Of a stretch of 64,000 nucleotides of DNA, positions 30,246 to 33,107 are shown one piece after another. Numbering within the stretch: position 1 is the first letter of the stretch; each line of letters begins with the position of its first letter. The DNA is from Streptomyces sp. CoH27 (GTDB taxonomy: Bacteria; Actinomycetota; Actinomycetes; Streptomycetales; Streptomycetaceae), in assembly GCF_020181035.1 (NCBI RefSeq), contig NZ_JAIQYY010000033.1, positions 1 through 64,000 on the forward strand. The letters run 5' to 3'. Both the position numbers and the translations under genes were made by a program. The notes beneath the pieces are model-generated. The model searched no databases. It had not been told where the DNA came from and saw only the letters and a program-made list of their open reading frames with translations.

Positions 30246-31367
30246 ATGGCCCTGCCCGAAGGACTGCGCAGCACCCCGTTTTCCCCGCGGTACGACGACC
30301 GCGTCGAGGAGTGGATGGACGTCTACGGCCATGCCGTGCCCCTGTTCATCACGGACCCGGCCGAGGAGTACGAGGCATTCCGCACCGCCGCCGGCGCGCT
30401 GGACTACTCGATGCTCTACAAGTGGCACGTCGAGGGCGAGGACGCGCTCGCCACCGTCGACGCCGTCTTCTCGCGGAGCGTCCGCGGGCTCGGCGCCGGT
30501 CGTATCGCCTACGGCGTGGTCGTCGACGCGGACGGCTTCATGATCGACGACGTGACCGTGGCCGTCCTCGCGCCCGGCCACGTGGTCGTCACCGGCGGCA
30601 ACCCAGCCACTCAGGAATCGCTGACCGCGCACGCCACCGGCGGCACCACGGTCACCGAGCGTCGCGACGAGTTCGCCGTATTGACCTTGCAGGGGCCGCG
30701 CAGCCGCGAGGTTCTCCAGCGGCTCACGCACGTCGACGTCTCCAACACCGCCCTCCCCTACTACACGTTCATCCGGGACGTCCTGGTCGCGGGCATAGGT
30801 GCGCAGGTCAGCCGGATCGGGTTCACCGCCGAACTCGGCTACGAGATCCAGGTGCCGCGCGAGCGTGCGCTGGACCTGTGGGACGCGGTCCTCGACGCGG
30901 GGGCTGACCTCGGGGTGAAGGCCGCCGGCGCGCTCGCCCTCCTGACGTGCCGCACCGAGGCCGGGATGATCATGGGTGAGCTGGAGTACGACCACACCGT
31001 CACCCCGTTCGAGTGCCGGATGGGCTGGGCGGTCGACTTCGACAAGGGCCCCTTCCAGGGCCGCGACGCGCTGCTCGCCAAGAAGGGCACCGCGCCGGGG
31101 CGTGTGGTCAGCGTCGTCGTGGACGCCGCACCCGAGGCCGCCGAGGGCGCGCGGCTGGAACTGGACGGACGGGACGTGGGCTACGTGACGATGGCCGTGC
31201 CCTCGCCCGTACTCGACGGCGCCACCCTGGGACTCGCCCGTGTGCACCGCGACGCGGTGAAGTCGGGAACCGCGCTGACCGCGGTCGCCGCCGACGGTTC
31301 CAAGGCCGACGCCACGGTGAAGCCCACCCCCGTGTACGACCCCGAGCGCACCCGCGTACGGGCCTGA
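30246..31367 (+). CDS. GcvT-family tetrahydrofolate-dependent demethylase/aminomethyltransferase
   Basis: The 373-residue protein has the GCV_T folate-binding fold (DYSMLYKWHVEGEDA, LTLQGPRSREVLQRLT, SRIGFTAELGYEIQVP, TCRTEAGMIMG) and the C-terminal GCV_T_C barrel (RMGWAVDFDKGPFQGRDALL). It is not part of a glycine-cleavage operon: no P or H protein is nearby. The family includes GcvT, LigM-type O-demethylases and DmdA. Followed by purU and folD, it most likely passes a methyl or methylene group from the catabolic substrate to THF (inference). The ATG at 30246 follows CTGGAG; an in-frame ATG at 30195 lies inside the operator and is unlikely. Confidence 0.8.
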   Translation: MALPEGLRSTPFSPRYDDRVEEWMDVYGHAVPLFITDPAEEYEAFRTAAGALDYSMLYKWHVEGEDALATVDAVFSRSVRGLGAGRIAYGVVVDADGFMIDDVTVAVLAPGHVVVTGGNPATQESLTAHATGGTTVTERRDEFAVLTLQGPRSREVLQRLTHVDVSNTALPYYTFIRDVLVAGIGAQVSRIGFTAELGYEIQVPRERALDLWDAVLDAGADLGVKAAGALALLTCRTEAGMIMGELEYDHTVTPFECRMGWAVDFDKGPFQGRDALLAKKGTAPGRVVSVVVDAAPEAAEGARLELDGRDVGYVTMAVPSPVLDGATLGLARVHRDAVKSGTALTAVAADGSKADATVKPTPVYDPERTRVRA

Positions 31368-31386
31368 GCCGGAAGGCACCGCAGCC

Positions 31387-32232
31387 ATGCAGCGCTACAT
31401 CCTGACCGTCAGCTGTCCCGACCAGCCGGGCATCGTGCACGCCCTCTCCGGTGGCATCACCGAGGCCAAGGGCAACATTGTGGAGAGCGCCCAGTTCTCC
31501 GATCCCGGCACCGGCACTTTCACCATCCGGGTGCTTCTGGAGACCCCGCAGGCCGACGTCGAGAGCCTGCGGGACGAGCTCTCCCTGCGCCTGGCGCGCT
31601 TCGACCCCGTGCTGTCCCTGCGGCCGGAGCAGCAGCGGCGCCGGGTTCTGCTGATGGTGTCGAAGTTCGACCACTGCCTGGTCGACCTCCTCTACCGCTG
31701 GCGTCTGGGCGAACTGCCCGTCGACATCCCGCTCATCGTTTCCAACCATCCCGACCTGGCGCCCGTCGCGCAGCGCTACGGCATCCCGTTCGTCCACCTC
31801 CCTGTCACTCGCGGCACCAAGCCGGAGGCGGAGGCCGAGCTTTTGCGGCTGGTCGCCGAGCACCGGGTCGACTTCGTGGTCCTCGCCCGCTACATGCAGG
31901 TCCTCTCCGACGACCTGTGCCGCACACTGTCGGGGCGGGTCATCAACATCCACCACTCGTTCCTGCCGGGCTTCAAGGGCGCCAAGCCGTACCACCAGGC
32001 CCACGACCGGGGCGTCAAACTCATCGGCGCGACCGCCCACTTCGTCACCGCCGACCTGGACGAGGGCCCGATCATCGAGCAGGACGTCGTGCGCGTCGGA
32101 CACCGGCACACCGCGCCGGAGCTGGTCGCCATCGGCCGGGACGTCGAACGGGTCGTCCTGGCGCGGGCGGTGCGCCTGCACGCCGAGGACCGGGTCGTGC
32201 TGACCGGCTCCCGCACCGTCGTGTTCTCCTGA
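31387..32232 (+). CDS. purU: formyltetrahydrofolate deformylase
   Basis: The 281-residue enzyme hydrolyses 10-formyl-THF to formate and THF. It has the N-terminal ACT domain ([19 protein letters not shown]) and the formyltransferase-like domain with the Asn-His-Asp catalytic set in [28 protein letters not shown] and [14 protein letters not shown] at 31387, 19 bases after the demethylase stop. With folD it turns one-carbon units removed from the substrate into formate and frees THF, as folD-purU do beside a demethylating oxidase in the nicotine-plasmid pathway of Paenarthrobacter. Confidence 0.95.
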
Positions 32233-32252
32233 CCCGAGAGGTTCGTACGACC

Positions 32253-33107
32253 ATGACCACCGCGACGCTGCTCGACGGCAAGGCCGCGGCAGCCGAGATC
32301 AAGGCCGAACTCGCCGCCCGGGTCCAGGCGTTGAAGGCACGGGGCGTCACCCCGGGCCTGGGGACCATCCTGGTCGGCGACGACCCGGCCAGCCACTCCT
32401 ACGTCGGCGGCAAGCACCGCGACTGCGCCCAGGTCGGCATCGCGTCGATGCGGGTGGAGCTGCCCGCCACCGCCTCCCAGGCCGACGTCGAGGCCGCCGT
32501 GCTCCGGCTCAACGCGGACCCGGCCTGTACCGGCTTCATCGTCCAGTTGCCGCTGCCGGCCCACATCGACACCCACGCCGTACTGGAGCTCATCGATCCC
32601 ATCAAGGACGCCGACGGGCTGCACCCGGCGAACCTCGGGCGCCTCGTGCTCGGCATTCCCGGGCCGCTGCCCTGCACGCCCCGCGGCATCATCGACCTGC
32701 TCCGCCGCAACCAGGTGGCCATCACCGGCAGGGAGTTCTGCGTCATCGGCTGTGGCATCACGGTGGGTCGTCCGTTGGGCCTGATGCTGACCCGAAGCAC
32801 CGAACACGCCACGGTCACCCTGTGCCACGAGGCCACCCAGGACACCGCGGCTCACGCCCGGGTCGCCGACGTGGTCGTGGCCGCGGCAGGCGTGGCCCAC
32901 CTCGTTGGGCCCGACTGGATCAAGCCGGGCGCCACGGTCCTGTCCGTGGGCATCACCCGGACCGTGGAGGGCATCCTCGGGGACGTCCACCCGGACGTCG
33001 GGCAGGTCGCCGGCTCCCTGGCACCGCCGGTGGGCGGAGTGGGGCCGATGACCCGGGCCATGCTGCTGACCAACATCGTCGAAGCCGCCGAGCGCGGCCG
33101 GCCCTGA
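32253..33107 (+). CDS. folD: bifunctional methylene-THF dehydrogenase/methenyl-THF cyclohydrolase
   Basis: The 284-residue protein has the FolD signature: Tyr50 and catalytic Lys54 in [22 protein letters not shown] (normally KDVDG), and the NADP-binding turn [11 protein letters not shown] (normally GRSxxVGxP). It converts 5,10-methylene-THF to 10-formyl-THF, the substrate of PurU. The altered glycine motif and [10 protein letters not shown] suggest a pathway-specific copy rather than the housekeeping enzyme. ATG at 32253, 20 bases after purU. A strong terminator follows at 33115-33152, ending the operon. Confidence 0.92.

What the first reader, a model, noticed from the sequence alone, without database searches (positions are those of the whole stretch)
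30246..33107. Dedicated THF one-carbon removal operon, possibly coupled to a formate dehydrogenase 25 kb away
A GcvT-like protein without glycine-cleavage partners is followed tightly by purU and folD and a strong terminator. Known: folD and purU accompany a demethylating oxidase in the nicotine plasmid pathway to dispose of methyl groups as formate. The window also carries an NAD-type formate dehydrogenase (57936-62290) able to use that formate.
Basis: partly seen in the sequence, partly recalled or inferred. Interest (0 to 1): 0.6.

Follow-up and report, generated by a model that had tools for sequence, protein, structure and literature searches.

The report
Folate formaldehyde-disposal operon serving a P450
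A soil Streptomyces carries a three-gene operon that probably catches the one-carbon waste released when a neighbouring P450 enzyme strips a methyl or similar group from an aromatic food molecule, and the operon, the P450 and the ring-cleavage genes share the same DNA switch.

Summary
In detail: stand-alone GcvT-like gene (30246-31367), purU, folD, then a GC-rich hairpin without a T-run. The genome keeps its T-protein (with gcvH) and a sarcosine-oxidase locus with folD and purU elsewhere. The GcvT-like protein resembles folate domains of fused oxidative demethylases (best profile: C-terminus of TMAO demethylase), not LigM or DesA; no metF is linked, so carbon should enter as 5,10-methylene-THF and leave as formate. 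New here: a palindrome (TATCC-N4-GGATA) lies at three promoters: this operon, an XplA-like P450 (40286-41467), and the divergent ferredoxin-reductase/ring-cleavage and glutamine-synthetase-like operons; it recurs in relatives. GcvT-like and P450 orthologs occur in the same 5 of 394 class genomes and are adjacent in two genomes of one other genus. Best explanation: the P450 releases formaldehyde or an equivalent, the GcvT-like protein loads it onto THF, FolD and PurU release formate. Substrate and both catalytic steps are inferred. The link to the formate dehydrogenase 25 kb away is not supported: no operator, and no linkage in relatives.

The parts
29443..30126 (-). TetR-family regulator (TetR_C_31), divergent from the operon; likely repressor acting at O1
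   Evidence: Pfam; 57% identical TetR in the same divergent position on contig L032
30188..30201 (.). Operator O1, perfect palindrome TATCC-N4-GGATA, inside a conserved block that holds TTGACA
   Evidence: present at this place in 17 of 18 loci with sequence upstream of GcvT (miss L018)
30246..31367 (+). stand-alone GcvT-like protein, proposed THF acceptor of a methylene/formaldehyde unit
   Evidence: Pfam/NCBIfam; DD, E and R residues aligned with T-protein and Tdm
31387..32232 (+). PurU, 10-formyl-THF deformylase
   Evidence: TIGR00655 341 bits, above cut-off
32253..33107 (+). FolD, methylene-THF dehydrogenase/cyclohydrolase
   Evidence: NF010789 436 bits, above cut-off
33115..33152 (+). GC-rich hairpin, 14-bp arms, terminator-like but no T-run
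34181..34921 (-). PuuD-like gamma-glutamyl hydrolase (Peptidase_C26; below the PuuD cut-off)
34888..36378 (-). PuuC-like aldehyde dehydrogenase
   Evidence: 562 bits, below the PuuC cut-off of 850
38407..39873 (-). APC-family amino acid/amine permease
40023..40262 (-). ferredoxin next to the P450
40286..41467 (-). XplA-like cytochrome P450 (P450a), proposed source of the C1 unit; I-helix GHLDI lacks the usual Thr
   Evidence: 633.8 bits to 8q5j, next XplA at 296; co-occurrence with GcvT
41526..41539 (.). Operator O1 upstream of P450a (1 mismatch)
41675..42310 (-). second TetR regulator (TetR2), 54% identical to the first
42393..43388 (-). HpaG-like fumarylacetoacetate-hydrolase family protein (below the HpaG cut-offs)
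43249..44175 (-). LigB-type extradiol dioxygenase (HpaD-like, below the HpaD cut-off)
44168..45631 (-). HpaE-like semialdehyde dehydrogenase (528 bits, below the HpaE cut-off of 638)
46484..47743 (-). ferredoxin reductase
47713..47988 (-). second ferredoxin
48073..48086 (.). Operator O1 in the divergent ferredoxin / GS-like promoter (1 mismatch)
48249..49604 (+). glutamine-synthetase-like ligase (possible gamma-glutamylation of an amine)
49641..50957 (+). second P450 (P450b), CYP125/124-like, with the usual AGNETT motif
57936..62290 (-). NAD-type formate dehydrogenase genes; real, but not shown to be part of the system
   Evidence: no operator; not linked in relatives

Best explanation
The operon is the one-carbon disposal arm of a TetR-controlled catabolic regulon. 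An XplA-like P450 (40286-41467), fed by ferredoxin and ferredoxin reductase, removes a one-carbon unit (O-methyl, N-methyl or methylene bridge) from an aromatic, probably phenethylamine- or phenylacetate-type, substrate. The stand-alone GcvT-like protein joins the formaldehyde or its bound precursor to THF, giving 5,10-methylene-THF. FolD oxidises this to 10-formyl-THF and PurU releases formate and THF. The demethylated catechol then goes into LigB-type ring cleavage (HpaD/E/G-like enzymes). SHOWN here: gene families and order, conserved folate-site residues, shared operator, co-occurrence, absence of linked metF. INFERRED: the P450 reaction, the GcvT reaction, the substrate, and which TetR binds the operator.
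For: Families. Operator O1 at 3 cluster promoters of the window, 0.16 expected; 45 hits against 0 for a reversed control over 32 sequences, some from the same genomes; exact form at only two places in the 9.75-Mb genome. GcvT and P450a orthologs in the same 5 of 394 class genomes; in 392 genus genomes all 9 with GcvT have P450a. Adjacent GcvT-P450a in L024 and L032 (one other genus); L032 also holds HpaE/D/G-like genes, ferredoxin, reductase, LLM oxidoreductase, permease and TetR. A related stand-alone GcvT (45%) sits beside EtfAB, a trimethylamine-dehydrogenase relative (894 bits) and a full-length Tdm relative (898 bits) in L033. PurU and FolD lie near the fused GcvT-domain oxidases in the same genome. 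metF on other contigs. Precedents: purU-mabO-folD, glyA-soxBDAG-purU.
Against: No enzyme was assayed and the substrate is unknown. P450a lacks the I-helix Thr, and its nearest named relative XplA is (recalled) a denitrating P450, so demethylation is not assured; P450b could be the demethylase. L032, L067 and L024 show no PurU or FolD, so these are not universal. S. olivaceoviridis (L018) has the GcvT-like gene alone, without O1, and no P450a ortholog in its genome. G794 has P450a without GcvT. The profiles for both proteins were built from loci that carry both, so some positives (G000, G191, G304, G711) are found by construction; counts are not corrected for kinship, and bit cut-offs were placed in gaps seen after the search.
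Confidence: 0.6

Rival explanations
1. The GcvT-like protein is itself the demethylase (LigM/DesA/DmdA type): it moves a methyl group from the substrate to THF, giving 5-methyl-THF, and the P450 does a different step.
For: DmdA, DesA and LigM profiles match at 90, 43 and 42 bits; the GcvT fold is shared; P450a lacks a standard I-helix motif.
Against: All three scores are far below the cut-offs (410, 800, 580). 5-methyl-THF cannot enter FolD without MetF (recalled), and in 6 genomes searched no MetF match is on the operon's contig (G000, G127) or closer than about 0.37 Mb to the cluster (G994, a weak match). Closest profiles are Tdm, T-protein and SoxA, all methylene-level (chemistry recalled).
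Confidence: 0.17
2. The one-carbon donor is not P450a but another oxidase, such as P450b or an unlinked amine oxidase; the operon is a general formaldehyde sink of the regulon.
For: O1 also lies at the divergent promoter upstream of GS and P450b. PurU/FolD go with flavin oxidases in known systems and lie near SoxA-type genes in this genome.
Against: Contigs L024 and L032 pair GcvT directly with P450a; presence and absence track P450a. Among the cluster proteins scanned the ferredoxin reductase is the only FAD-dependent pyridine-nucleotide-type flavoprotein, and no amine-oxidase or GcvT-fused oxidase was seen.
Confidence: 0.15
3. The operon serves ordinary glycine, sarcosine or serine one-carbon metabolism and is next to the catabolic cluster by chance.
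For: GCV_T fold; PurU and FolD are general folate enzymes.
Against: T-protein with gcvH on C12, and SoxA, a second GcvT-fused protein, PurU and FolD on C1 already cover this; shared operator and co-occurrence.
Confidence: 0.04
4. The operon feeds formate to the NAD-dependent formate dehydrogenase at 57936-62290 as one functional unit.
For: Both are real; formate is the expected product. Two relatives (G994, G846) carry an FdhF/YdeP-type molybdenum oxidoreductase inside the cluster. 8 of 11 GcvT-bearing genomes have a near-full-length FdhA homologue somewhere.
Against: No operator near the FDH at up to 2 mismatches; no match in the fetched flanks of 6 relatives; 8.2 Mb apart in same-species G891; 3 of 11 genomes lack a near-full-length homologue.
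Confidence: 0.08

Closest known systems
purU-mabO-folD operon of plasmid pAO1 (Arthrobacter nicotinovorans nicotine pathway; passages of review PMC3891541 read)
   Same: FolD and PurU dispose of methylene-THF made by a demethylating step; pathway-specific transcriptional control
   Different: There the THF-loading enzyme is an oxidase (MABO); here it is a GcvT-like protein with no oxidase domain, and the oxidant is proposed to be a P450
glyA-soxBDAG-purU (sarcosine oxidase operon; passages of PMC3691474 read) and the SoxA locus on contig C1 of this genome
   Same: GcvT-type domain plus PurU (and FolD on C1) for methylene-THF
   Different: The GcvT domain is fused to the oxidase subunit there
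TMAO demethylase Tdm (NF053776; PDB 9q59)
   Same: Best profile match of the GcvT-like protein, over the C-terminal GcvT domain; shared C-terminal YDP..R motif
   Different: The other half of Tdm (DUF1989 in the L033 relative) is absent
LigM/DesA and DmdA THF-dependent demethylases
   Same: GcvT fold, THF as acceptor
   Different: Profile scores far below cut-offs; no linked metF
PDB 8q5j (Streptomyces scabiei P450) and XplA
   Same: Nearest solved sequences of P450a (633.8 and 296 bits, full length)
   Different: XplA's flavodoxin fusion (recalled) is absent from the 393-aa P450a, which has separate ferredoxin and reductase genes. I found no functional description of 8q5j

Membership tests
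Glycine cleavage T-protein | Score above NCBIfam cut-off | tested here: not met
   156 of 235.85 bits (TIGR00528) and 184 of 300 (NF001567)
Glycine cleavage T-protein | Partners gcvH/gcvP nearby | tested here: not met
   None among the cluster proteins scanned; the true T-protein is beside gcvH on C12
LigM/DesA O-demethylase | Score above cut-off | tested here: not met
   42 of 580 and 43 of 800 bits
LigM/DesA O-demethylase | Linked metF to return 5-methyl-THF (requirement recalled) | tested here: not met
   matches of G000 on C61, C36 and weakly C31, none on C32
DMSP demethylase DmdA | Score above cut-off | tested here: not met
   90 of 410 bits
TMAO demethylase Tdm | Full-length, with the non-GcvT half | tested here: not met
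   212 of 1100 bits, matches profile 386-763 only
GcvT-fold methylene-THF-forming domain | Conserved folate/catalytic residues (roles recalled) | tested here: met
   DD118-119, E213, R253 aligned and kept in orthologs, Tdm and T-protein
PurU | Score above cut-off, ACT + formyl transferase domains | tested here: met
FolD | Score above cut-off, both domains | tested here: met
TetR regulon | Shared palindromic operator at its promoters | tested here: met
TetR regulon | Binding of this TetR to O1 | not testable with these tools
   needs a binding assay; TetR2 is a 54% paralog
P450 demethylase | Release of formaldehyde from a methylated substrate | not testable with these tools
   needs an enzyme assay
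Formate-dehydrogenase-coupled module | Linkage of FDH and operon in relatives | tested here: not met

The most novel reading that the evidence does not exclude
P450a and the stand-alone GcvT-like protein form a two-part, folate-coupled P450 demethylase: the hydroxymethyl or formaldehyde product is handed to THF without escaping, the trans-acting equivalent of demethylases with a fused GcvT domain, in a branch where stand-alone GcvT proteins pair with unrelated demethylating enzymes (trimethylamine dehydrogenase/ETF in one case, P450 in another).
Probability: 0.35. Interest if true: 0.75.

Novelty: new variant of a known kind. Interest (0 to 1): 0.55.

Why it matters
P450 O- and N-demethylation in lignin and alkaloid breakdown makes toxic formaldehyde. 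A P450 that comes with its own folate acceptor and formate exit would be a ready module for engineering and a new way to tie P450 chemistry to one-carbon metabolism. The conserved operator also marks, by sequence alone, which genes of a roughly 20-kb pathway act together and so narrows the search for the substrate.

Tried and rejected
AlphaFold model of the GcvT-like protein from 7 rows: mean pLDDT 58.5, not used for any claim. Tree of 11 GcvT domains: joins the operon's protein with those of L024 and L032 and then the TMADH-linked one (support 99/99), but T-protein, SoxA and DMGO-like rows have long branches, so deeper order is not used. Operator search at 2 mismatches is near chance (10 found, 5.4 expected); used only to show no site near the FDH. 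FDH linkage: rejected. Sigma-70 and T-run terminator scans found nothing in 29400-34500.

Paper searches: all 10 were used. Four returned no paper (28: XplA + cytochrome P450 + aminomethyltransferase; 83: at least 4 of 5 S. scabiei/XplA terms; 84: GcvT + tetrahydrofolate-dependent + demethylase + cytochrome P450 + gene cluster; 85: aminomethyltransferase + cytochrome P450 + demethylation + formaldehyde + aromatic). I therefore found no description of a P450-GcvT pair, in that library and by those words only. Passages were read of PMC3891541 and PMC3691474 and one figure legend of PMC11355015; other papers were seen only as listings with abstract starts. The PMC3891541 passage says that FolD and PurU yield formaldehyde; PMC3691474 says PurU yields formate. 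I follow the second, which fits the enzyme's name and known chemistry.
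Full report
WHAT IS THERE. The window is contig C32 of a 9.75-Mb genome; 17 of the 18 GcvT relatives found by the genome scan are Streptomyces. ATG-initiated genes for a GcvT-like protein (30246-31367), PurU (31387-32232) and FolD (32253-33107) follow each other with 19- and 20-bp gaps, and a hairpin with 14-bp arms follows folD. A TetR gene is divergent upstream (29443-30126).

WHICH GcvT. The best NCBIfam profile is the C-terminal part of TMAO demethylase (212.6 bits), then T-protein (184, 156), SoxA (175), DmdA (90), DesA (43) and LigM (42); none reaches its cut-off. Against solved structures the order is Tdm, T-proteins, sarcosine oxidase, dimethylglycine oxidase, with 3tfh (a GcvT-like protein, DmdA by recall) last. 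The Asp pair (D118, D119), E213 and R253 (numbering from the 390-aa ORF) are invariant in the 7 orthologs and align with the same residues of T-protein and Tdm; that these are folate-site residues is recalled. The C-terminal YDP..R motif is shared with Tdm and, more loosely, SoxA and the DMGO-like protein, not with the T-protein.

WHAT THE REST OF THE GENOME COVERS. Four places match the GcvT-like protein: this one, the T-protein beside gcvH on C12, and two on C1 that belong to a sarcosine oxidase alpha subunit (1274 bits) and to an 812-aa protein with a C-terminal GcvT domain that I call DMGO-like. C1 also holds a PurU and a FolD. There are four FolD and three PurU copies at E below 1e-90. 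So the operon is an extra, separate set. MetF matches lie on C61, C36 and weakly C31, not on C32; in G994, G846, G711 and G891 none is closer to the cluster than about 0.37 Mb, and in G127 it is on another contig.

THE NEIGHBOURHOOD. Downstream on the other strand lie a PuuD-like hydrolase, a PuuC-like aldehyde dehydrogenase, an APC permease, a ferredoxin, an XplA-like P450 (P450a), a second TetR, HpaG-, HpaD- (LigB) and HpaE-like genes, an acetoacetate-decarboxylase-family protein, a ferredoxin reductase and a second ferredoxin; divergent from these are a glutamine-synthetase-like gene, a second P450, an LLM oxidoreductase and an F420 reductase. Several of the names (HpaD, HpaE, HpaG, PuuC, PuuD) are below the families' cut-offs and are used as likeness only.

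CONSERVATION. One scan of genome contigs gave 18 loci. GcvT-PurU-FolD recurs in 16 of 18, with a TetR match upstream in 15 of 18 (L010 shows none there). Misses: L018, where the gene stands among ketoacyl-synthase-type genes, and L024, a 3.4-kb MAG contig. In L009 FolD and in L025 GcvT match in two pieces, as in a frameshift. P450a lies in the fetched locus in 15 of 18; in two more (L009, L013) a P450a ortholog is on another contig of the genome; L018's genome has none. Outside Streptomyces, L024 (a MAG, in G304) and L032 (from G127) come from two genomes of one other genus of the class. In both, GcvT is followed after 2-3 bp by P450a. L032 also carries HpaE-, HpaD-, HpaG-like genes, ferredoxin, reductase, LLM, a permease and the divergent TetR, but no PurU or FolD match on 9.8 kb. 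L067, another contig of G127 that starts inside a P450a copy 92% identical in the shared 552 bases, shows none either. Thus GcvT with P450a is the wider pairing and PurU-FolD the Streptomyces addition, unless they were lost or lie beyond the contig ends.

CO-OCCURRENCE. In 394 class genomes GcvT orthologs (E<=1e-70; lowest 528 bits) are in 5, and P450a orthologs (best match at least 437 bits; next genome 357) in the same 5: three Streptomyces and the two of the other genus. In 392 genus genomes 9 have GcvT, and P450a (at least 762 bits; next 284) is in those 9 and in G794. In G794 a shortened FolD match abuts TetR on a 15-kb contig of an assembly of about 1010 contigs, so loss or misassembly are both possible. 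Fisher P values are 1.3e-11 and 1.8e-17, without correction for kinship; the two samples share G000, G191 and G208. Both profiles were built from loci that hold both genes (from G000 and G304, and among others G191 and G711), so those positives are by construction; the informative part is the absence of either gene alone elsewhere. Cut-offs were set in gaps seen afterwards. In 296 phylum genomes only G000 and G461 matched GcvT; P450a was not searched there.

THE SWITCH. Aligning the region upstream of GcvT showed a block kept even in L032, with the palindrome TATCC-N4-GGATA beside TTGACA. With at most 1 mismatch the window holds three copies (30188, 41526, 48073; 0.16 expected, none of 100 shuffles reached 3): upstream of this operon, of P450a, and between the ferredoxin and GS-like genes. 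Over 32 sequences (several from the same genomes) there are 45 copies and none of the reversed control: upstream of GcvT in 17 of 18 loci with that sequence (miss L018), upstream of P450a in 14 of 14 loci that hold this region, and between ferredoxin and GS in 6 of 6 sequences with that region, the window included. The exact form occurs at two places in the whole genome. The permease promoter has a conserved degenerate form. A second palindrome, GTTTG-N4-CAAAC, marks the aldehyde dehydrogenase, permease, ferredoxin/GS and LLM promoters of the window but not this operon. The two TetR proteins are 54% identical, so which one reads which site is open.

A TELLING COUSIN. The next-nearest stand-alone GcvT (45% identity; G461, L033) lies beside ETF alpha and beta genes, a relative of trimethylamine dehydrogenase (894 bits) and a full-length relative of Tdm (898 bits, DUF1989 plus GcvT domain). 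Stand-alone GcvT proteins of this branch thus appear beside demethylating enzymes of different chemistry. That trimethylamine dehydrogenase releases formaldehyde is recalled.

MECHANISM. FolD and PurU handle carbon from the methylene level on; with no linked MetF, the unit should arrive at that level. Known operons do this with oxidases: purU-mabO-folD (passages of PMC3891541) and glyA-soxBDAG-purU (passages of PMC3691474), where the latter text states that sarcosine oxidase releases formaldehyde, or methylene-THF if THF is present. The first source names formaldehyde, the second formate, as the end product of FolD/PurU; I follow the second. Here the oxidant gene that tracks the operon is P450a. 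Its nearest solved relatives are 8q5j (S. scabiei, known to me only from a figure legend of PMC11355015) and XplA. P450a has GHLDI where P450b has AGNETT, so oxygen activation may depend on the substrate. The substrate is unknown; the ring-cleavage, permease, aldehyde dehydrogenase and GS-like genes suggest a methylated or methylene-bridged phenethylamine or phenylacetate (inference).

FORMATE DEHYDROGENASE. The FDH genes are real but have no operator at up to 2 mismatches. Flanks fetched beyond the cluster in 6 relatives (G994, G846, G711, G874, G191, G208) hold no match to FdhA or its partner subunit; in the four where the last cluster gene was seen (G994, G846, G711, G191) they reach about 16-20 kb past it. 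A homologue above 730 bits over nearly the full length exists in 8 of 11 GcvT-bearing genomes and was not found at E<=1e-100 in G799, G846 and G874; in same-species G891 it is 75% identical and 8.2 Mb away on the same contig. By contrast an FdhF/YdeP-type oxidoreductase (a 650-aa stretch, 875 bits against a cut-off of 582) lies inside the cluster in G994, a 98% identical one in G846, with fragments at the same place in L012, L017 and L019, a possible formate or other redox sink worth testing.

VERDICT. Observation confirmed; one-carbon disposal supported; FDH coupling not supported; the new content is the regulon and the P450 partner. New variant of a known kind, confidence 0.6.

Noticed in passing
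36399, 39904, 48026, 51040: Second palindrome GTTTG-N4-CAAAC at four cluster promoters (4 found with up to 1 mismatch, 0.24 expected in the window), absent from the GcvT operon.
   Followed up: partly
L070:15256-17205, L071:14566-16515: FdhF/YdeP-type molybdenum oxidoreductase inside the cluster of two relatives, with remnants in L012, L017 and L019.
   Followed up: partly
L033:9825-18154: Stand-alone GcvT (45% identical) in a locus with EtfAB, a trimethylamine-dehydrogenase relative and a full Tdm relative.
   Followed up: yes
40286-41467: P450a lacks the I-helix Thr (GHLDI; GHLDN in L024), as XplA does (GHMAI); its nearest solved relative is 8q5j.
   Followed up: partly
20195-22528: P-type ATPase with a C-terminal hemerythrin domain in one ORF.
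   Followed up: no
33262-34464: Protein without a Pfam match, conserved at about 70% beside folD in many relatives, shortened in others.
   Followed up: no
L010:13467-14567: PuuD and aldehyde dehydrogenase match only as fragments while the GcvT operon and P450a look intact.
   Followed up: no
G000:C21:61133-61146: The only other exact O1 palindrome in the genome; its neighbourhood was not examined.
   Followed up: no
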